Assembly (NCBI GenBank): GCA_036172665.1
Contig: CM069876.1
Location: 37,727,001 to 37,791,000 of the forward strand
Direction of reading: 5' to 3'
Length of the DNA: 64,000 nucleotides
DNA from: Prosopocoilus inquinatus
Taxonomy: Eukaryota; Arthropoda; Insecta; Coleoptera; Lucanidae
A program made the position numbers and the translations under genes. Positions 17,501 through 63,762 of the stretch are shown here, piece after piece. Under the pieces are notes generated by a model that worked only from the letters and a program-made list of their open reading frames with translations, was not told where the DNA came from and did no database searches. Numbering within the stretch: position 1 is the stretch's first letter; each line of letters starts with the position of its first letter.

Positions 17501-20500
17501 AGACCGCACAATAAAAACGAATTAATTTGAATTTTTGATGACGTCGAAATACGTAGTTCCGAACTCTGCATACTATTCAAATTTATATCAAAACAAAAAA
17601 TGGATTGGGCTCGTTTACCGTTTTTGTTTTGTGTCAAGTCTTGATACTTTATCTTGTGTTTCATTAATATTTCTAACAAAATGTATCTATCCGTATTTTA
17701 AAACATAAAAAAAAATAATTAGAATAATCGACCGATAAACGCTAGCCCCCATATTCGGACTTTTAAATTGTTTAAAAATATTTTATAAAAAATTTCGTGA
17801 AATGTTTTTCACCTTCAATGAAATGTTCTGTAATGTCATTTTTTTATTGTCATTAATTTTTATAATTTCAAAATTGACAATCTGCATTTCAATGTTCATG
17901 CTTCGTGTACGATGAGAGCAGAAATATGAGCGAGAAGAAATGTGTTTTAGTGCATGCAAGAGCGAGAAAAAAATTCGAAGAGTAGGCCGCGAGAATCTTC
18001 AACTTCTCGAATCCAAAAAAAAAATGGGAAATCAAATTTTTCCAAATGTAAATTTTCACCTACCGTCTTCAAATAATTATAACCTTTTTACGCCTACTTC
18101 TAATAATAATAAATAAAGATCGGAATCACTTATTTTGACGTCATCAATAAGAGTTTGGGTTTACACAGAAAATTATTTTTAAATTATAAGTTTTTATTAC
18201 GTAATTCTTTCCGGAATAATCCGGGAAGGTGGAGGAGGGGAGGGGGCATCCTGCAGTTGGTTTGCGGCCTATTCTTCATAATAGGGCGGCACAGTACTGT
18301 CAATTCGCCAAGTTTCAAATTCGATTTTTGTGTAGAAAAAAGTTGCACGTTAAAAATCGTATTATCCAGATTAGACGCTTAATAATAATAATAATAATAA
18401 ATTAAACTCCACCAACTGAAGACTTGTGAAAAAAACATGATTAAAAAACAGCGAGTTTATTAAAAACAAAAGTAACGTTTTGTTTTGTTTTTTTTTTTTC
18501 AATTTATTTGTTTTGTTTTTTTCTTTTTCGAACATAACGCGATACTTTTTTTCTTCGATTATCGAAAATATCTCGCAGCGGTTTTGATTTATTAATCAGT
18601 TTACTCTTTTTATTTATTTTTTATATTTCATAAAATTGTTTCTGTTCTTTCGTAAATACCTACACACTGCTGTTTGCCGTAAAACGTGCGATAGTCATTT
18701 GTTTTTCTTTCTCTTCTTTTCTCGTTGAAGTTTTCCATTTTTTTTTTCAATTTAAATTCCGATTACGTTTTTCCAAAAGACGAAAATTCTTCTTCTTTTT
18801 TGTTTTTATTTTCCTTGTCATATATTTTCAAACTGAATAATTAAAAACTTTTTACAATCTACGATCGAATCGTTGCAATCGTCTTTTGTTTTTGTTTTTT
18901 CTTTTTTACTTTTGTATTATGATTGTGATTTGTCTTTCTTCGTATGCACTCTTTTTGTAAATTTCGAATTGCGGTTGTGTAATGTTTCTTTTTCTAATGA
19001 TGATGGTCGGTAAGAATTTTTATGTTACTTTTCCTCGACTGTTAAAAAAATTCTTCATATTCTTTTTTATTTTCAATTGTTTACCGTTTTTTTTTTTTAT
19101 AAATTCAATGATTATAATTTCCTTAGAAATTTTTGATTGTGTTTCTCGACCATCAAAAAGTTTTTCACTTTTCTTGTTTTTGATTGGGTGCATGCATATC
19201 TTTTTCTGTTCTTGTATCTTTTGTTTTTGTCTTTTCCTTGCTTTTGTATTATGATTGTGATTTGTCTTTGTTCGTATGCTCTCTTTTTTGTAAATTTCGA
19301 ATTGCGGTTGTGTAATGTTGTTTTTTTTCTAATGTTATAATCGGCGGTAAGAATTTTTATTTTACTTTTCCTCGACTGTTAAAAAATTCTTCATATTTTT
19401 TTTTATTTTCAATTGTTTACCATTTTTTTATAAATTAAATGATTATAAACATATAAAATAGCGACATCTTACTATCGCTTTTTGACCTAACATTGCAGTA
19501 GGATAGACAAATTGAAGCGGGATTTGCTCCTAATGAGTCCCCCATGCAAGGCGGCCATGCTTGCTGTCAAAGCATAATGAAAGATTTTAGAAAAATTTTG
19601 TGCAAATCGTTTTTGATTGCAGTGAGAACCTCGAGCAGCCTCTGGACAGCTGTTTCAGCCCTGCTTGGGGCTTCTTCAGCAGAAACGTAGCTCGACATTC
19701 CCACTGCAGACCAAAAATGACTTGCCCAATTTATTCGCAAATGCGATGTAAGAATGATGAACAAATAAAATAGCGACATCTTACTATCGCTTTTTGACCT
19801 AACATTGCAGTAGGATAGACAAATTGAAGCGGGATTTGCTCCTAATGAGCTGTCCAGAGGCTGCTCGAGGTTCTCACTGCAATCAAAAACGATTTGCACA
19901 AAATTTTTCTAAAATCTTTCATTATGCTTTGACAGCAAGCATGGCCGCCTTGCATGGGGGACTCATTAGGAGCAAATCCCGCTTCAATTTGTCTATCCTA
20001 CTGCAATGTTAGGTCAAAAAGCGATAGTAAGATGTCGCTATTTTATATGTTCATCATTCTTACATCGCATTTGCGAATAAATTGGGCAAGTCATTTTTGG
20101 TCTGCAGTGGGAATGTCGAGCTACGTTTCTGCTGAAGAAGCCCCAAGCAGGGCTGAAACAGCTGTCCAGAGGCTGCTCGAGGTTCTCACTGCAATCAAAA
20201 ACGATTTGCACAAAATTTTTCTAAAATCTTTCATTATGCTTTGACAGCAAGCATGGCCGCCTTGCATGGGGGACTCATTAGGAGCAAATCCCGCTTCAAT
20301 TTGTCTATCCTACTGCAATGTTAGGTCAAAAAGCGATAGTAAGATGTCGCTATTTTATATGTTCATCATTCTTACATCGCATTTGCGAATAAATTGGGCA
20401 AGTCATTTTTGGTCTGCAGTGGGAATGTCGAGCTACGTTTCTGCTGAAGAAGCCCCAAGCAGGGCTGAAACAGCTGTCCAGAGGCTGCTCGAGGTTCTCA

Positions 20501-23500
20501 CTGCAATCAAAAACGATTTGCACAAAATTTTTCTAAATGATTATAATTTCCTTAGAAATTTTTGATTGTGTTTCTCGATCATCAAAAAGTTTTTCACTTT
20601 TCTTGTTTTTGATTGTGTGCATGCATATCTTTTTCTTTTTCCTCGCAAACTGTTTCGACTGTCTTTTGTTTTCCTTTTTCTTTTTCTTTATCCATCAATT
20701 TCATTTTGAATGTTTGCTATTAATTACCATCTTGAGAATTTTTAAATCGGCCCTTTTTGAGTTTTATTGCGCACGACTTAGGGCCAGTTTTTCAATTGGG
20801 GTTTAACTTTAAGCTCCGTTTTATGCCTGTGGAAACAATTGTCCTTACAATTGTTACCATGGGAATAAACCGAAGCTTAAAGTTAAACTGTGATGGAAAA
20901 ACCGGGCCTAAATGTAAAAGGAAGAAAAATATCATCTTCGATCTCAAAATCCAAAATCCACGATTCTGAAGATGAAATCGTACATAGTACCAACTACTAA
21001 AATAATCATGCGGTTGGCAACATTGCTGCAGAGCTACGCTTGACAAGCGCCACCCAATGATGACATCAAGTTAAAATATGTGACTGCGATCTCTACTAAT
21101 AAATCATAATAAAAACACTAAGAGAATCTGTATACATAATTTTTTTATGTTGATAATGAAATGTACAGGGTGTAACTTTAATGAGGAGCCAAACTTTAAG
21201 GGCCAGTTCCTCACACCGAAATATGAAAAAAAGTTTATATAAACATAGGTTCGCAAACGCGTAGTTTCTCGGATATAACAAAATCATCGTAGGCAGCCAC
21301 GATTTCATATTTGAAGTCTCATAACTTTCCCGAACAACTTTCCCAAATAACCAAACACCAAATCATTGGCAGACGCGCAAACATTTCCTGCGCGGCAAAT
21401 TTAAAATAAGTTTCATGAAATTTCTGAATGCTACGAAATATTATTATTATTATTATTATTTACATGAAATGAAATCTTTTGGCTTTACAACACTAGTTGT
21501 GACGCCAGCCTATCCGTCGTACAGGGGTGCGTTCGAAAACTAGCGGCACCTTCAAGTGCGTCGTCTTGGGTGTCTAATCGCATTTTCACGAGTTTTAACT
21601 CATTTTGCATCTCGTTCACCTGTTTGCGTTGTGTACATGACAACAGGCAAACTTTTAGTAGGTAAAATTAAAAGTTAAAAGTGGAATAATCGATAGAATG
21701 AATTTACAATAAAATAGCAAGTAAGAAAGTCGAAGGCGGAGCTTCTACTGTGGCTGAGGTACGTTTCAAGATTCGTGTGCTAAACAGACGAACACATTCA
21801 GTATGACGTCACATAAACATGGCGCCTAAGATGGCGCAATTCAAACTCAACGATTTTTTATTATTCATTGACATTTTTAAATTGAATTTAAACCCAGTAA
21901 TTAGTAATTGATGATTATTAGACAATAAGGAATCAGGGCCGTAGCCAGACTAAATATTCAGGGGAGGCTTATCGTAGCGTAGGACAGCCTCTGTAAGTTT
22001 TTTTTTTATTCTAATTTTTTCTTCTTTTTTTTTCTTTTTACGGATTTAAAATATTTTATAAATAAAAAACATAACAAATTAAATTGTAAATTATTGCATA
22101 AAATAATAACATTCAAAATAATAGCAGTTTTTGTTGTTTGAAATAAAGTTCCTTTAGTTTTTCACATTTAAATTACTCAATAGATAAATATCTGTTCAAA
22201 AATTGAAAGACCGGCGTCGGCGTTGCCTTGCGAAAACTTAAACCGGCAACAGTGCCCTAGAGTTAGAAATTTTGTGATAAATTTGCCGAGTGTGTGAAAT
22301 AAGTGACAAGGTTATGAATGAATATCTAATAATTATGGTAGAATAATGAGTGATGAATACTTTTATCTTAACATTTGAAATGCTTCTATATACAAATACA
22401 ATTAACGAACATCAAGTGATTGATTTCCCACATACCGCAATTGCATGCGCTCGAGAAACATGAGTTTTCAAAAGTTACACCGCAAAACAGACACCAACAA
22501 AGCAAGGAAAAGATAAACGAAGAATGTATGTGTCATTTCGTGTCAGGTTGGGCCATTGTAGGGCAGGCTTAAAACTTTCCAGGGCAGGCTCAGCCTCCCT
22601 TGGCGCCCCTCTGGCTACGGCTCCGTAAAGAATGCACTCTTATTAAAAAAATGCGAAATAAAAAACAACCCTATCCCTTCTAGTGACATAGATGATACAA
22701 ATAGCGATAGCCTCCACCTGGACATTTGGGACCACGACGACGAAAGCTCAGTGCTCGAGGCAGTCAGCAAGCTAAACGAAGTCCGGGGAGTCCGGGGCCT
22801 CGGCCGCTTCTTCAAACAGGTCTGCCAGTCGGCCAGGCAGAGTTCGCAGGATGACTTCCTGGGGTGCGTCACGATCCCGCTGCAGGACATCCCCTCGACG
22901 GGCGTGGAGGGTTGGTTCAAGTTGGACGCGAGGTCGCAGAGGAGCTCCGTGCAGGGGAGGATACGGCTGAAGATGTGGCTGTCGACGAGAGAGGACAGGG
23001 GGATCTCCGAAGAGGACAATTGGACCGAGCTCATGCAGCACGAAAGTTTGTACGCGATGTTCATCGATTACGAGCTGAGGAACTGGAATAAGGAGACGTG
23101 GACGTGGAACGGGGATTTACCGGGGCCGGCGCTTACCATTTTACATCAACATGCCGTGCAAGGTATGATTATGGTATAAATTACTTTTCTAAATCTTAAG
23201 AATGTAAGTTACTAAATCAACAGACATTGAGGCGTATTCTGTAACTTTTTAACGGCCTGTTAAAATTTAGAGATCCTTTAAAATTTTAAATACAATGCTG
23301 TGATTGGTTGTTAACGTAGCAACAAAATTTAACAGTCCTTTAAATTTAACGCTTTTGATATAGAATAGGCCCCTTTGTGTACAGATAGCGACATTACAGA
23401 TTTCTTTTTATCTATCCTTGACGCACAATACGCTCATCTAATTTCGTTTTCCGCTGACTGCACCGGTGTGCAATGAGTGTATCTTCATCTCGGTTCAACT

Positions 23501-26500
23501 TTATGTAATAAAACGAGATGAAGATACACTCAGTGCATGCTAGCGCAGCCAGTGGAAAACCCTATAAGTAGCCAGGAATAAAAAAAAAACAGTCGAAAGG
23601 GATGTTTCTTTTACTTATTTATAAACTGACTACCCGATCTATTAATATTTGCCATTGCGACGTTGCCAAGTTTAAGTCCCGTATCTATTTACTTGTTGTT
23701 TGGCATCCTCTTTTTTGTTATTATTTACTGCTCCCCGATTGCTGCGCCACTGTTCGTTGTTAATAATATTCTTCCAGGTGACTTAACCGACTTGCAAGGC
23801 GCAATGGCTCGATTTGTGGCCGCGTCGAGGGTGTACCTAAAATACCCCCTCGATCCTAGATGGATGCTGCAGCTCCTCACGGACATAGAACACTCCTGGT
23901 CCAATTCAACCATCACCAGGGAAGAAGAGATGTGGTTGGCGGAGAGCTTCACGGCCATGTTAGGTGGGGACATTCATTCATACCATTTTTTTTTCAAAAA
24001 AGAAAACCATTACTGGTTTTTCCAGAACGATGGCTGCATCAACTTCGCCATCACAGACAATTATTCCCCGCCCTGCACACCCCCTCGTTGACGAGGCTCG
24101 AGCATCTGCTTCGTTGCTTGGGTTATTTATCGAATATGGTAAGTTGAGCGTGGGGGTTGAGCGTGAGGGTTTATGGTAATACTATCGCGTTGCAGAAGGC
24201 GTTTTGGAAATGCTGCCCTTTCAACAAGGAGATCCGCGGGGAAATCGTCGCCACCCTCCGCAAGGGCACCCCCGAATGGATTGCAAACCTCAAAAATAGC
24301 ATCATGACGCCGGAGGAATACGACCACACTTTCGTCGATTTCTGCTCCGAAGTTTACGTCCACCTGCAGCACGCTTTATCACACTACCATCCCCTGTTTG
24401 AGGGGTAAGTGAAACTGTTTGCTGTTTTGAAACTAGAAACGTTTCGACTTGCACTCATTTATTTTTTAATAAAATAACTATGAAAGGGCATTTCTGTTCT
24501 TTGGATCACCCTGTATATCCTGCACTGTTTAAAAATAAAAGTTGATTTAAGTGGAACTCGTTGTAAACAGTTGAAAATCTAAATTAGGGCCGATTTCTTC
24601 ACCTAAGGATAAATTTATCTGCCAGGTAGTATCCTCGGAAACTATTACCGGTAGAATGGTTGCCAAGGGCAGATAAACTTATCAGGAAGTGAAGAAATTG
24701 GGCATCAGCCATTTCAATTAAATGTTGAATAATATTTACTTCTCTTAACAAAAATTACTATAATAAAATCGAATTTTCTATAATTTAATTTATTTTATTG
24801 CCAGAGCGTTTTCTTTAAAGCCGCGAAACAAAACAAAAAAGAAAAACAGGAAAATAACGTCGGGTTACGGCGTCGTTCGGGTTTCCCCCCCCCCCCCCCC
24901 CCCCGATTTTTACTGCGCGAATGTTTATGATTTCCGTTCATCCGGGGCCGTAAAGAGCCCAATATTTAATCCACAAAAATTGCGAAGGAGCTTTTATTTA
25001 ATTCGCGAGCCGAGGGCGATTTACGGGCCGTAAATTTTATGCGCTGTAAAAGCGACGATATTCTTTTATTAACCTGTTTCGACCCTGATACCATAATTGC
25101 CTTTAATGAAAAAAAGCCAACCCTTACGTGTTTTTATTAATAACTGACCACTATGATAACACCGTGAATAAAAAAGCAATTGAAAACACGTACAGGGACT
25201 TCATAATTGATTGTATGTACTTAACTTACAAGACCAAATTATGCAACCAACAATACACTTGTCGAGCATAATTTTTCACAGTATCCTGGATCAACAATTT
25301 TATATATTTTAGCCAAAAGTTAAGTCAGGATGAAATACAGAATAAAAATAATTCTCTTCATGCCCCCCTCCCCCTCCCTCCTTGACGAAGAGTTTTCAAT
25401 TAACTTTTTTTTTGTTTCAGAACAAACGGCATTCCGTACTTCAGCGTGGTCTTCAAGCAACTGGACAAGCTCCTATCCGACGAAATCATTTCTTTCTTGA
25501 ACTTGCAGGAACATCCGGACAGTAGATTGATTTTCTCCGTCTATCTCGAAGTCAAAGACCTGGCATCTTTCAGCCAGCACTTGCCCAGCGGGGGTGACCA
25601 CAAACTCCTCTTACCCCGATGTCACGAGTGGTTCGAACCGTCTGTAAGCTGCTGGCTGACCATATGCAAGGGGAAAGCTCTTCAAAGAGTAAGAAGCAAC
25701 ACCCAAATTTATTTTTTATGATAATGTAACGACCGCGAGTTATTTATCTAACAATTTAAGGATGGACGGAAGTTGACAATCCTCAGGACGCAATACCTAA
25801 ATTTATTTTGATGCTAATGTATCCACCGCGAGTTATTTATCTAACAATTTAGGGATGATCAGAGGTTGACGATCTTAAGGACACAATGACTCTATTCTGG
25901 CTTTCGTTCGAAAACTTCTGGGAACGCATTTTTGGCTATAAATCTCAAACCATCTACCGAAGAAGAAAATCGTCTTCTTCTCTAAGTGACAACGGAACCC
26001 TCAACCCACCCACCCTGCCCCGAGTTATTGATAACCCAATCAACTCTTTTTAAGTCACGAGCCACCCCCTGGAAGACCCGGTGGAAGGTTTGAGATTTAC
26101 AGCCAAAAATGCGTTTCCAAAAGTTTTCGCACGAAAGCCAGAATAGAGTCGTTGGGATGGACAGAAGTTGACAACCCTCAGGACACAATACCTAAATTTA
26201 TTTTGATGCTAATGTATCCACCGCGAGTTATTTATCTAACAATTTAGGGATGATCAGAGGTTGACGATCTTTAGGACACAACGACTCTATTCTGGCTTTC
26301 GTGCGAAAACTTCTGGGAACGCATTTTTGGCTATAAATCTCAAACCATCTACCGAAGAAGAAAATCGTCTTCTACTCTAAGTGACAACAGAACCCTCGCC
26401 TCACCCACTCTCCCCCGGCTTATTGATAACCCAATCAACTCTTTTTAAGTCACGAGCCACCCCCTGGAAGACCCGGTGGAAGGTTTGAGATTTATAGCCA

Positions 26501-29500
26501 AAAATGCGTTTCCAAAAGTTTTCGCACGAAAGCCAGAATAGTGTCGTTGGAATAGACAGAAGTTGACAATCCTCAGGACACAATACCTAAATTTATTTTG
26601 ATGCTAATGTATCCACCGCGAGTTATTTATCTAACAATTTAGGGATGATCAGAGGTTGACGATCTTTAGGACACAACGACTCTATTCTGGCTTTCGTGCG
26701 AAAACTTCTGGGAACGCATTTTTGGCTATAAATCTCAAACCATCTACCGAAGAAGAAAATCGTCTTCTACTCTAAGTGACAACAGAACCCTCGCCTCACC
26801 CTCCTCCGGCTTACTGATAACCCAATCAACTCTTTTTAAGTCACGAGCCACCCACCCCCTGGAAGACCCGGTGGAAGGTTTGAGATTTATAGCCAAAAAT
26901 GCGTTTCCAAAAGTTTTCGCACGAAAGCCAGAATAGAGTCGTTGGGAAGGACAGAAGTTGACAATCCTCAGGACACAATACCTAAATTTATTTTGATGCT
27001 AATGTATCCACCGCAAGTTATTTATCTAACAATTTAGTGGTGATCAGAGGTTGACAATCTTGAGGACAGACACAACGACTCTATTCTGGCTTTCGTGCGA
27101 AAACTTCAGGGGACGCATTTTTGACTATAAATCTCAAACCATCTACCGAAGAAGAAAATCGTCTTCTACTCTAAGTGACAACGGAACCCTCAACCCACCC
27201 ACTCTCCCCCGGCTTATTGATAACCCAATCAACTCTTTTTAAGCCACGAGCCACCCCCTGAAAGACCCGGTGGAAAGTTTGAGATTTATAGCCAAAAATG
27301 AAAATGAAAAAGTGCCAATTTTTCTAAAGTCAAAGGCCAAAATAATGCCGGTTTGGGATCATCAAAAATCAGAACAAAAAACAAACCTGTTAAAAAAAAT
27401 ATTAAACAAAAAAAAGAAATTGAAAGCAACAGCTACAAAATACAAGGCGCGAAGTGAACAAAAACAAAAAAAAAAAACAAAGGAAGATCGACGACGCCAG
27501 GCTGAACGAAAAACAACAGTTTTCCGGGCGAATCAAGAAATTCCTATAGAATTAAAGCGAATTGTAAAAGAAAGGCAACGATGCGATTAAAAAAAAAAGA
27601 AAATAGAAAATACAGTGCGCAAAACAAAAGATCACAAAAACAAGAAGAATTAAGTAGATTTTTAGGTTAAGATCCTGAAATGTCACTGGTTCAAGGTTGC
27701 CAGAATTTTTGCAAGCAGTGTCGCCAACTTATTGACATATTGTACCCGAAAAAGCGCCATTTTTTTAAAGTAAAAGGCAAAAAACACAAAATATCGCGGA
27801 TTTGAGATCATTAGAAATCAAAACAACTAAAAAACAAAAGAAACCCCGTTAAAAAATCAGAAACGAGAGAGAAATGAAAGTAATAGCAACAAAATAGAAG
27901 GCGCGAAGCGAATAAAAACAAAAAAGAACAAACAAAGGAAGATCGACAACGCCAAGCTGAACGAAAAGCGACGGTTTTCCCGAGTGCATTAGAAAATTCG
28001 TAAAAAAAGCAAACTGTAAAAAAATCGATAATACGATTAAACAACCAAGAAGAAACGAAATCCAGCGCGCAAAACAAAAGAAGATCACAACCGAGACACG
28101 AAACAATTGATAAACGATTAAGTACATGCAATCAAGCCTCAATGAAACGCGCAACATCAATTACGAAAACACAAAGAACAGAAAAACAGAAACAAAAGAA
28201 GATTGACGATTAAAAAATTTGGAAAAAAAAAACTATGGTAAGAAACAAAAGTCCAAAAGTTTTCGCACGAAAGCCAGAATAGAGTCGTTGTGTCCTAAAG
28301 GTTGTCAACTTCTTTTTCCTCGTTGTCTCTCTCAATAACTTTGGTTTCCTAGAAAACGGTAAACGTCACCGTCATCTAAAAATATATAAAAGGTGCTTTT
28401 AAATGTTTGGACGCATTCGTCTTCTAAATTTGTTAGCAACAACAAATCCAAGTAAACTATTATGTTGCATTACATATTAGGGCCGCTACATTGTGGTGCC
28501 GTTATCCTAGTTTTCTCAAGTTTGTCTAAATTCTTCCTTTTTTTCTATTTTATGGAAACACAATAATTTTGTAAACGTAATAGAAAAAAAAACATGAAAT
28601 ATTTTTCGAATTGGTTTAATGAGAAACCACACAGCATACCGAGAAAAGCAGTTTACTTTTCTTCGCGTGTAAAAAACTTGAGGGCATTTAACGAATTAAA
28701 TTAAACAAAAATAAGACCTGATTTCAAGAAAAGATTAACATTAGCAGTTTTGGTTTCTCAAAGTAATTAAAGCGCAGTGCGCAGCAAATTAAATCACCGT
28801 GACATGTAACACAGCTCATATTTCATTTAGTACGTGACATCTTAACAAAAAGGTGAGGCATTGTTTTTGTAAACTGGCGTCGCGAGTTGTCTCAAGCCGG
28901 GAGACTAAATAGGATTAGTTATTTTAGTTGATGTTTTTACTTCAAAATTTGAAGAAATTTTTCCAAGCAAACATAAAACGTGGGTTCCAGGTTCGAACCG
29001 CCGTGGAGCTGCAGAAACCTTGCGATGGCGAGAAACTAGTGAAGCACAGCTCATCGGCGGTCGATATCGTGGCGATGTTCTGTCAATTAAGAGATTTTTG
29101 GAGACTTCTGCAATGGCCTAAAGCCCACTCGATTCCTCTGCTTTCGCAACTCCTGGACTGCATTTGCTCAGCTGCTTTGCTCTACGCGGACATCACCTAC
29201 CAGGCGCTCATGGAAACGGGTTATTTCGATAGACTGGGTCCTTTTAGGATATGTGATGAAATGTGCATTGCTTCCAATAATTTGGAGTATACGTATAAAT
29301 TCATATCATTATTAGGTGAGTGAGTTAAGTCAGAGGAGGTGAGTTTGGATCGAGCCGAAATCTTTTTTTTTTTTTTGTTTCAGAAAATTACTTCGACTTT
29401 GTCACTTTGGAAACGATGGCATCGGAAACGCAATGCGCAACTTTGACCAGCCAATTGGACAGCACGTTAAGTCAACTCCAGGCTAGGGTCTTGGACATTT

Positions 29501-38504: not shown

Positions 38505-38829
38505 AAGAAAAAGTAAATAAACAAGTTGTCAAGAGAAACAAGTTGTCAAGAGAAACAAGTCGTCAAGAGAAACGAAAAGGTAACACGATTTTAAACTAAA
38601 ATATGTACGGACTTTGAAAATTTAAATGACATATTTTGTAGTTTTCTAGACTCTTTAAACATGATATAGATCTGTCAATTAATTATAAAAAAAAAATTTA
38701 GTTTTAATTTAGTTCTAGTTACTTTTCTCTTTATTCCGGACAACTCGTATTTTAGTTTAAAATCATGTTACCTTTTCGTTTTTCTTGACGACTTGTTTCT
38801 CTTGACAACTTGTTTATTTACTTTTTTTT

Positions 38830-47737: not shown

Positions 47738-47761
47738 CTTCGCCTTTTCTGCAGTGCTCAA

Positions 47762-48832
47762 TTAATTACTCTGTATTTCTGTACTGCCCACTTCATTATT
47801 CTCTACTTCTGTCTTACTGCTCACTTCATTACTCTCTACTTCTGCACTGCTGCTTACTTCATTACTCTCTACTTCTGTCCTGTTGCTTACTTCATTACTC
47901 TCTACTTCTGTCCTGCTGCTTATTTCATTACTCTCTACTTCTCTCCCATTGCTCTGTTCATTATTCTCTGCTTCTGTCCTGTTGCTGACTTCATTCCCCT
48001 CTACTTCTGTCCTGCCCACTTCCTCTGCTTTAGATACTTCCTTACTTTCAACTTTATCATCACCATTGCTTGCTTCCTTTTCTTCTTGGCAAATCAAATG
48101 CAAATTATACTTTTTATACTTAAAATAATCAGGCACAACTGCCAAAAAAGCAACACCCCTAATAACTTCGACAACCACAGAAATTTCTGGGTTTTTCAAG
48201 TCGACTTTGTGTTGACCATTCTGTTTACTAATCAAATCAGCGATTTCTCGAATCACGACATCCCTGGATAAACTATTATTATTTCTGTGATTGAACACGA
48301 TCGAGAATGATTTCGCCCCGTCTGTGAAATGTTTCTTGGCGAGTGGCTCGAAAGCCTTCTTCACGTCGTCCATGTATGCCTTGCACGTGACTTCAACGGG
48401 GATTAAACGTAATAAAAAGCGAGCTTGCTCCAGCTTGGTGCTGCTTATATCAGTTACTATAGCCTGAGCCAGTTCTACTGGATTATCTACGGTGGTTTGT
48501 ATGAAGAGAAAGTTCTTGGCACCGGAATCGATGTGCTGGAATCTTCTTTCCCCTTCATGCTTCAACGCCTCCATTTCACGCTTGAAGTCATCGTCGATGT
48601 CTCCCCGACGGGCTTCTGGTTCGTTCTCTTTGCTTGGCTCGGCCCCATAAAGCAGTTCCGCATATTTATTCAGGATGTTGTAGGACTCTCTGATGCATTC
48701 TTTTTCACGGTTGTTACAGCTGCACAGAAAGCCTTTTAGCCCCGGAATGAGGGCGTGTTTCCTGGGCTTCTTGTTAGTACTAGAGGAATTGTGTGAATAG
48801 TACGGTTTTCGACGTTTTGCAGATTGTTCCAT
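47762..48832 (-). CDS. Thumpd1: THUMP domain-containing protein 1 (tRNA acetylation adaptor)
   Basis: A single exon encodes 356 residues. The N-terminus is basic (MEQSAKRRK). The sequence GLKGFLCSCNNREKECIRES is the THUMPD1/Tan1 N-terminal signature, and residues ~150-250 form the THUMP RNA-binding domain, including the conserved segment VVVEVIRGVAFLAVVPDYFKYKKYNL. Family role: THUMPD1/Tan1 brings tRNA-Ser and tRNA-Leu to the acetyltransferase NAT10/Kre33 for N4-acetylcytidine at position 12. Residues 276-356 are an unusual acidic tail of seven 11-residue repeats (type EVESNEVSNRT), encoded by a 33-bp minisatellite; this tail is not part of the family core. The gene is divergent from NDUFV2, with start codons ~410 bp apart. 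Confidence 0.93.
   Translation of the reverse strand: MEQSAKRRKPYYSHNSSSTNKKPRKHALIPGLKGFLCSCNNREKECIRESYNILNKYAELLYGAEPSKENEPEARRGDIDDDFKREMEALKHEGERRFQHIDSGAKNFLFIQTTVDNPVELAQAIVTDISSTKLEQARFLLRLIPVEVTCKAYMDDVKKAFEPLAKKHFTDGAKSFSIVFNHRNNNSLSRDVVIREIADLISKQNGQHKVDLKNPEISVVVEVIRGVAFLAVVPDYFKYKKYNLHLICQEEKEASNGDDKVESKEVSKAEEVGRTEVEGNEVSNRTEAENNEQSNGREVESNEISSRTEVESNEVSNRTEVESNEVSSSAEVESNEVSSKTEVENNEVGSTEIQSN
47765..48007 (-). repeat. 33-bp coding minisatellite in THUMPD1
   Basis: About seven tandem 33-bp units encode the 11-residue repeats of the THUMPD1 tail. All units keep the reading frame and vary by point changes; the last unit is one codon short. Confidence 0.9.

Positions 48833-51370: not shown

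Positions 51371-63762
<12,392 letters not shown>

What the first reader, a model, noticed from the sequence alone, without database searches (positions are those of the whole stretch)
19448..20534. A 312-bp tandem repeat in which every monomer encodes a complete type-I hammerhead ribozyme
Seen: CTGAAGA, a 5-bp stem II, GAAA, a stem III palindrome ACAGCTGT ending in the GTC cleavage triplet, a 7-bp stem I, an internal loop and an 18-position outer stem, all in canonical order (20103-20193 worked out base by base). Known: hammerheads occur in satellite DNAs, Penelope-like elements and plant/animal retrozymes. Inference: the transcript self-cleaves into 312-nt units that may circularise, making this a retrozyme-like family.
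Basis: partly seen in the sequence, partly recalled or inferred. Interest (0 to 1): 0.93.

Follow-up and report, generated by a model that had tools for sequence, protein, structure and literature searches.

The report
Hammerhead-ribozyme retrozyme in a beetle
A 312-base non-coding mobile element in a beetle genome carries a hammerhead-type self-cleaving RNA motif, and its insertions have the same paired-arm layout as the resident Penelope-type retrotransposons, which points to the machinery that spreads it.

Summary
The ribozyme is real as sequence and predicted structure. Rfam gives no gathering-level hit, but a covariance model from 25 relatives outside the family hits all 8 units (83-87 bits). 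Stems I and II covary, and 11 core positions are invariant across copies (0 of 440). The 'tandem repeat' is really two inverted arms, head to head. In the copies fetched, 33 of 37 two-armed insertions pair one outer end at unit position ~312 (A) with one near 175 (B), usually between 12-13-bp target duplications and with microhomology at a variable inner junction. Resident Penelope-like elements look alike: 47 of 48 neighbouring endonuclease hits are head-to-head, and 12 of 12 examined have one short and one tailed end. Best reading: a metazoan non-LTR retrozyme whose RNA, probably circular, is copied from both cut target strands by Penelope-type machinery, one strand starting at A and the other at B. 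Cleavage, circularity and the enzyme's identity are inferred. Known kind of element; the insertion anatomy is the news.

The parts
19448..20537 (.). Insertion 1 of the 312-bp retrozyme family: two head-to-head arms; outer ends A (left) and B (right)
19448..19849 (-). Minus arm of insertion 1: outer end A (unit position 312), inner end at unit position 223; 402 bp
19848..20537 (+). Plus arm of insertion 1: inner end at unit position 109, outer end B (unit position 174); 690 bp, about 2.2 units
20052..20363 (+). Reference 312-bp unit used as query (unit positions 1-312)
20125..20173 (+). Type I hammerhead; predicted cleavage between 20166 and 20167
20437..20485 (+). Type I hammerhead, next unit; predicted cleavage between 20478 and 20479
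19638..19686 (-). Type I hammerhead in the minus arm; predicted cleavage between 19645 and 19644
20082..20212 (+). Extended stem-I rod enclosing the hammerhead (unit positions 31-161 in the predicted circle)
20236..20348 (+). Hairpin domain (unit positions 185-297) lying between RT start sites B and A in the predicted circle
19436..19448 (+). Left target-site duplication TAAATGATTATAA (boundary ambiguous by a few bases)
20534..20546 (+). Right target-site duplication TAAATGATTATAA
53117..54600 (.). Insertion 2 of the same family: two head-to-head arms; outer ends B (left) and A (right)
53117..54183 (-). Minus arm of insertion 2 (first bases shared with the target duplication)
54177..54600 (+). 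Plus arm of insertion 2, outer end A; 7-bp overlap with the minus arm at the junction
54362..54410 (+). Type I hammerhead in insertion 2
54119..54167 (-). Type I hammerhead in insertion 2
53807..53855 (-). Type I hammerhead in insertion 2
53495..53543 (-). Type I hammerhead in insertion 2
53183..53231 (-). Type I hammerhead in insertion 2
53118..53130 (+). Left target-site duplication TTATAATAGGTAT of insertion 2
54600..54612 (+). Right target-site duplication TTATAATAGGTAT of insertion 2

Best explanation
It is a non-autonomous, non-coding, non-LTR retrozyme of the metazoan kind, in a beetle. Proposed cycle: transcripts of the arrays cut themselves with the hammerhead, and the 312-nt pieces are ligated into circles (inferred). 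A Penelope-type protein, with reverse transcriptase and GIY-YIG endonuclease, cuts both target strands about 12 bp apart at an AT-rich AAC-N12-GTT-like dyad. Each 3' end primes DNA synthesis on the RNA, one strand starting at site A (unit position 312) and the other at site B (about 175). Both copies run toward the RNA's 5' side, often more than once around. Their ends meet by 1-7 bp of microhomology and are sealed. The result is two head-to-head arms with two fixed, different outer ends, a variable junction and a target duplication. Shown here: the anatomy, the paired ends, the duplications, the junction microhomology, and the same layout in resident Penelope-like elements. Inferred: cleavage, circularity, and which enzyme does it.
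For: Hammerhead: 8 descriptor hits against none in 100 resamples. Covariance models from 25 relatives without this family hit 8 units at 83-87 bits. Covariation on 28 sequences: 25 cells with changes on both sides against 12.2 shuffled, 0 of 500 shuffles as high; 81.8% of cells paired against 34-42% with partners slid. Core 0 of 440 variant against 2.3% elsewhere. Two-sided copying: of 41 insertions kept from 64 clusters, 37 are two-armed and 33 of 37 have one A and one B end (16 A/B, 17 B/A; 2 A/A, 1 B/B, 1 unassigned); for 33 of 36 assigned, P 1e-7 if ends were independent and equally likely. Target duplications: 25 of 41 are 12-13 bp and 30 of 41 are at least 12 (one of these 30 is element sequence), against 3 of 300 mismatched-flank controls. 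Junction overlap of at least 2 bp in 25 of 37 against 17% expected. Template not a linear cut monomer: 68 of 74 arms cross the cleavage site, 115 crossings in all, and 0 of 74 end within unit positions 113-119. One molecule usually serves an insertion: 14 segregating columns differ in 4.4% of comparisons within an arm, 5.2% across arms and 34% between insertions. Longest arm 2124 bp, 0 differences in 6258 same-arm comparisons. Penelope link: the resident element has RVT_1 and GIY-YIG. Of 48 neighbouring GIY-YIG pairs, 47 are head-to-head (150 of 2232 candidates scored). 12 of 12 insertions examined have one short and one tailed end with duplications of 12-16 bp. Its flanks show a similar dyad. 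In PMC11167929 (main text read) a purified Penelope-like protein cuts and extends both strands, prefers ATT sites and starts internally at two sites.
Against: No RNA data. No Rfam hit, but neither is the resident Penelope element's hammerhead hit. The A10.1-U11.1 pair and loopless stem III suggest a weak or dimer-dependent ribozyme (recalled). Core invariance is only moderately strong: 214 of 312 columns are invariant, so 11 random columns would all be invariant with P 0.015, and single units do carry core changes (6 cells among the 11 core columns). Uncut multimeric transcripts could also give arms that cross the cleavage site. In 6 of 37 insertions the arms differ at 2 or more segregating columns, and one plus arm is a mosaic, so a single circle cannot explain all. 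Retrozyme ends do not match the ends of the Penelope families fetched, and no Penelope copy with retrozyme sequence was found. The spacing of start sites differs (137 against 39 nt). The copies are the best-scoring ones, not a random sample.
Confidence: 0.68

Rival explanations
1. Same two-sided, Penelope-type insertion, but the template is an uncut linear multimeric transcript; the hammerhead is idle, weak or used for something else.
For: Arms cross the cleavage site without stopping. In PMC11167929 hammerhead mutants did not affect insertion in vitro and unprocessed RNA was the main substrate. One plus arm is a mosaic of haplotypes. The ribozyme looks sub-optimal (A10.1-U11.1).
Against: The core and the stems are conserved. 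Arms of up to 6.8 identical units exceed most arrays seen, so a linear source would itself have to be long. Inner ends are spread over the whole unit with no common 5' end.
Confidence: 0.2
2. Twin priming by a LINE-type retrotransposon.
For: Twin priming makes inverted insertions with microhomology at the junction (recalled).
Against: Twin priming should fix one outer end and leave the other variable, in a minority of insertions (recalled). Here both ends are fixed, and 37 of 41 copies are two-armed. No poly-A tail is seen at the printed ends.
Confidence: 0.05
3. Snap-back (self-priming) of one cDNA or antisense template makes the head-to-head arms, as proposed for bdelloid Penelope elements.
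For: PMC3846280 (passages) proposes it from palindromes at Penelope junctions.
Against: Snap-back predicts that the two arms break off at the same unit position. The inner ends differ by at most 20 nt in 5 of 37 junctions (counted by hand), which is the chance value (4.9). It does not explain one A and one B end.
Confidence: 0.04
4. An ordinary satellite grown by unequal exchange, with a chance or dead hammerhead.
For: Tandem units; no Rfam hit.
Against: Small dispersed arrays with target duplications and fixed ends; covarying stems; model hits from relatives.
Confidence: 0.03

Closest known systems
Metazoan non-LTR retrozymes (Cervera and de la Pena 2020, PMC7229834: abstract, first third of Results, Discussion and passages read)
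   Same: Type I hammerhead in a small (about 170-400 nt) non-coding repeat, under 50% GC, multi-copy, target duplications longer than 4 bp, highly self-paired RNA, co-occurrence with Penelope-like elements; that paper already names these as the likely mobilisers.
   Different: Here most copies are two head-to-head arms with two fixed, different ends. 'Inverted' and 'head-to-head' do not occur in that paper's main text (supplements not seen). Expression and circles not tested here. Minimal stem III and A10.1-U11.1.
Penelope-like elements with GIY-YIG endonuclease (PMC3846280 passages; PMC11167929 main text)
   Same: Head-to-head arms, an optional 'tail' on one of the inverted ends, 8-12-bp duplications, type I hammerhead with short stem III, AT-rich targets. 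The element in this genome shows all but the first-hand biochemistry.
   Different: The retrozyme codes for nothing, its RT start sites are 137 nt apart instead of 39, and its end sequences are not those of the Penelope families fetched.
Small hammerheads of Penelope elements that cleave as dimers (Lunse 2017; paper not held, title seen in a reference list)
   Same: Palindromic, loopless stem III.
   Different: Longer rod-like stem I; located in a non-coding 312-bp unit.
Plant LTR retrozymes (PMC4918200, search listing only)
   Same: Non-autonomous, hammerhead, circular RNA idea.
   Different: Type III hammerheads in LTRs and 4-bp duplications there (as cited in PMC7229834); type I, no LTR layout, 12-13 bp here.
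pDo500 satellite of Dolichopoda cave crickets (PMC2808323, listing only)
   Same: Insect repeat with a hammerhead (recalled).
   Different: Longer satellite unit; insertion anatomy not compared.

Membership tests
Metazoan non-LTR retrozyme | Type I hammerhead in each complete unit | tested here: met
   Descriptor 8 hits; relatives' covariance model 8 hits at 83-87 bits; Rfam gathering not reached
Metazoan non-LTR retrozyme | Unit of about 150-450 bp, tandem, GC below 50% | tested here: met
   312 bp, 43% GC; tandem within arms
Metazoan non-LTR retrozyme | Non-coding | tested here: met
   A 96-aa sense frame exists, but 61 of 239 changes are synonymous (25.5%) against 24.6% expected, with 17 deletion events and 2 stops
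Metazoan non-LTR retrozyme | Target duplications longer than 4 bp | tested here: met
   25 of 41 are 12-13 bp
Metazoan non-LTR retrozyme | Absence of LTR, primer-binding site and polypurine tract | not tested
   No dedicated search; the paired-arm layout is not an LTR layout
Metazoan non-LTR retrozyme | Expression as linear and circular unit-length RNA | not testable with these tools
   No transcriptome held
Metazoan non-LTR retrozyme | Self-cleavage in vitro | not testable with these tools
   Bench assay needed
Autonomous Penelope-like element | Open frame with RT and GIY-YIG | tested here: not met
   No such frame in the 312-bp unit; it is not a Penelope element
Insertion by Penelope-type machinery (works like) | Head-to-head arms with one short and one extended end and about 12-bp duplication | tested here: met
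   33 of 37 two-armed retrozyme insertions; 12 of 12 Penelope insertions examined
Insertion by Penelope-type machinery (works like) | Shared end sequence with a resident Penelope family | tested here: inconclusive
   No significant match to the loci fetched; other families in the genome were not fetched

The most novel reading that the evidence does not exclude
Penelope-type insertion is a paired reaction: a dimeric enzyme cuts both strands about 12 bp apart, and one strand always starts on the upstream RNA site while the other starts on the downstream site of a structured RNA. Two head-to-head cDNAs then anneal. Retrozymes are its circular-RNA parasites: they carry the two start sites on either side of a hairpin domain and go round the circle. 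This single rule would explain the 'optional tail', the inverted pseudo-LTRs of Penelope elements and the head-to-head arrays of retrozymes.
Probability: 0.5. Interest if true: 0.82.

Novelty: new variant of a known kind. Interest (0 to 1): 0.66.

Why it matters
What mobilises animal retrozymes is open; Penelope-like elements were proposed because both carry type I hammerheads, form tandems and co-occur (PMC7229834, Discussion). Here dozens of young copies carry a written record of the insertion: two fixed start sites, one per target strand, 12-13-bp duplications and microhomology joins, the same in layout as the resident Penelope elements. That makes the hypothesis directly testable, and it offers a simple reading of the odd inverted structure of Penelope elements themselves. 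In nine full-text searches I saw no report of the A/B paired-end rule for retrozymes; the library lacks most subscription papers.

Tried and rejected
Rfam at gathering level on the window: no match; at E up to 10 the top hits are microRNA models matching the long inverted repeat, and HH9 at 14.5 bits. RF00163 on the genome: 8 matches, 7 over the cut-off, none of them this family.

The 96-aa sense frame was considered as a coding gene and rejected: synonymous fraction 25.5% against 24.6% expected.

I first took the 21 arm differences of insertion C8:16593800 (729) as two different templates; they are mostly one 17-bp deletion, so I dropped that case.

Sequence kinship between retrozyme and Penelope ends was sought and not found. 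A shared CTATTT-like end and a TCGAGG..CTCACT stretch were noticed by eye and are not claimed.

The Penelope tail as a stable hairpin: folds no better than shuffles (z -0.46, 59 of 200 as good). The retrozyme's 137-nt domain is moderately better (z -2.3, 3 of 200).

The two-template (two RNA molecules) reading: 26 of 36 insertions with comparable columns have no arm difference at segregating columns, 4 have one, 6 have two or more. Left open.
Full report
What the window is. It lies on contig C8 of a 650-Mb assembly. The greatwall kinase frame at 61831-63531 matches beetles best among named hits (Nicrophorus 70%, then other Coleoptera, with moths near 50%), so the host is most likely a beetle.

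The observation. A 312-bp unit is present and each complete unit carries a type I hammerhead in canonical order. A strict descriptor finds eight in the window and none in 100 first-order Markov resamples. The ribozyme region folds at z -5.8 and the unit at z -6.4. A second insertion, 53117-54600, has the same build.

Is the ribozyme more than a look-alike? Rfam has no match at its cut-offs. Elsewhere in the same genome RF00163 has eight matches, seven over the cut-off, and some of these loci carry 73-86% relatives of the unit. Twenty further relatives were found by DNA similarity to one of them (40 of 315 candidates scored; 20 of the 45 matches fetched). In the 28-sequence alignment the ribozyme and a downstream block (TGCAATCGAAACTGACTTGCAA) are conserved; positions N7 and H17 vary most, though other core positions also carry losses in these old copies. 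H17 is G in 4 of 28, which should block cleavage (recalled). Stems I and II covary: 25 cells with changes on both sides against 12.2 in shuffles, and 81.8% paired against 34-42% when partners are slid. Stem III shows no compensatory change. Seven of the 28 were found by the Rfam model and so lean towards the motif. A covariance model from 25 sequences, none of this family or its two closest relatives, hits the eight units at 83-87 bits (with stem II alone 78-81 bits). Across 40 insertions the 11 core columns show 0 of 440 majority changes, against 1.96% in the rest of the rod and 2.3% in the rest of the unit; H17 is C in 35 and A in 5, both cleavable by the NUH rule (recalled). The statistics are moderate: 214 of 312 columns are invariant, P 0.015 for 11 random columns; 37 of 43 columns of the hammerhead are invariant, P 0.005.

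Insertion anatomy. I mapped all unit fragments in 46 stretches (275,340 bases) around the copies: 64 clusters. I dropped duplicated loci (five named), clusters at the edge of held sequence, those with under 200 bp matched and those under 90% identity, leaving 41. Of these, 37 have two arms and 4 have one. Among the 37, outer ends are A/B in 16 and B/A in 17; 2 are A/A, 1 B/B, 1 has an unassigned end (the last and one A/A are neighbouring halves of one locus on C11). Target duplications are 12-13 bp in 25 of 41 and 12 or more in 30 of 41 (one of the 30 is element sequence); of 300 mismatched flank pairs, 3 reach 12. Flanks outside the duplication show a dyad: A-A-(C) on one side, (G/A)-T-T on the other (29 insertions).

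The junction. Inner ends lie all over the unit. Arms overlap by at least 2 bp in 25 of 37 junctions, against 17% in random joins; 9 of 37 have a gap instead. The two inner ends agree within 20 nt in 5 of 37, the chance value (by hand), so snap-back is not the cause.

The template. 68 of 74 arms cross the predicted cleavage site, 115 crossings in all, and none ends at unit positions 113-119. A linear cut monomer is therefore not the usual template; a ligated circle or an uncut multimer is. At 14 segregating columns units differ in 46 of 1035 comparisons within an arm, 52 of 992 across arms of one insertion, and 34% between insertions; over all columns 1.25%, 1.7% and 3.5%. So an insertion usually copies one sequence type many times; the longest arm has 6.8 identical units. 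Against a single circle: in 6 of 37 insertions the arms differ at two or more segregating columns, and one plus arm is a mosaic. I put circle over multimer at roughly 3 to 1.

The RNA. Folded as a circle, the unit is a long rod holding the hammerhead (positions 31-161) and a hairpin domain (185-297) joined by two largely unpaired linkers; B lies in one and A in the other.

The Penelope link. GIY-YIG hits in the genome (150 of 2232 candidates scored) form 48 neighbouring pairs within 12 kb, 47 of them minus-then-plus, so the Penelope elements are head-to-head too. One 788-aa frame has RVT_1 and GIY-YIG. In 12 of 12 insertions examined (10 chosen from the head-to-head pairs, plus two fetched whole) one end is short and one carries a 39-nt tail, with 12-16-bp duplications and a similar flank dyad. 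They carry their own hammerhead with CTGAAGA and a palindromic stem III, which Rfam also misses. In the literature a tail on one of the inverted ends is on record for rotifer Penelope elements (PMC3846280, passages), and a purified lizard Penelope protein cuts and extends both strands and starts internally at two sites that bound the tail (PMC11167929). The retrozyme thus has the same layout, with the tail replaced by a 137-nt hairpin domain. What is missing is shared end sequence: none was found with the Penelope loci fetched.

Verdict. A new family of a known kind (metazoan non-LTR retrozyme), with an insertion anatomy I did not see described for retrozymes in nine full-text searches. It supports, from independent evidence, the published suggestion that Penelope-type machinery moves these elements, and it suggests a paired-start rule for that machinery.

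Noticed in passing
G000 C1, C2, C4, C5 (L059, L060, L068-L087): Resident Penelope-like elements: 12 of 12 examined have exactly one short and one 39-nt-tailed outer end; 47 of 48 neighbouring GIY-YIG pairs are head-to-head.
   Followed up: yes
L088-L107, L001, L002, L004, L005, L007: Many old scattered copies of a hammerhead plus downstream block TGCAATCGAAACTGACTTGCAACTA, an older wider population of ribozyme elements in this genome; several have lost core bases.
   Followed up: partly
window 19107-19210 and 20536-20639: The T-rich target of insertion 1 is itself duplicated; 19107-19210 is an uninterrupted 97% paralogue, close to an empty site.
   Followed up: partly
window 19954-20244 (+) and equivalents: 312 is divisible by 3 and a 96-aa sense frame spans most of the unit, but substitutions in it look neutral.
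   Followed up: yes
C8:15011523, C8:23792981, C9:24040530, C5:48361392: Insertions whose two arms carry different haplotypes, hinting that two RNA molecules, or template switching, can serve one insertion.
   Followed up: partly
window 25760-27300: 395-bp tandem repeat, 3.9 copies, 94% matches, unrelated to the retrozyme by eye.
   Followed up: no
window 38519-38573 and 38778-38815: A 17-bp repeat (AAACAAGTTGTCAAGAG) in short arrays in opposite orientation 200 bp apart.
   Followed up: no
window 47755-48015: 33-bp minisatellite (8 copies) inside the minus-strand 356-aa frame 47762-48832, giving a repeated acidic peptide.
   Followed up: no
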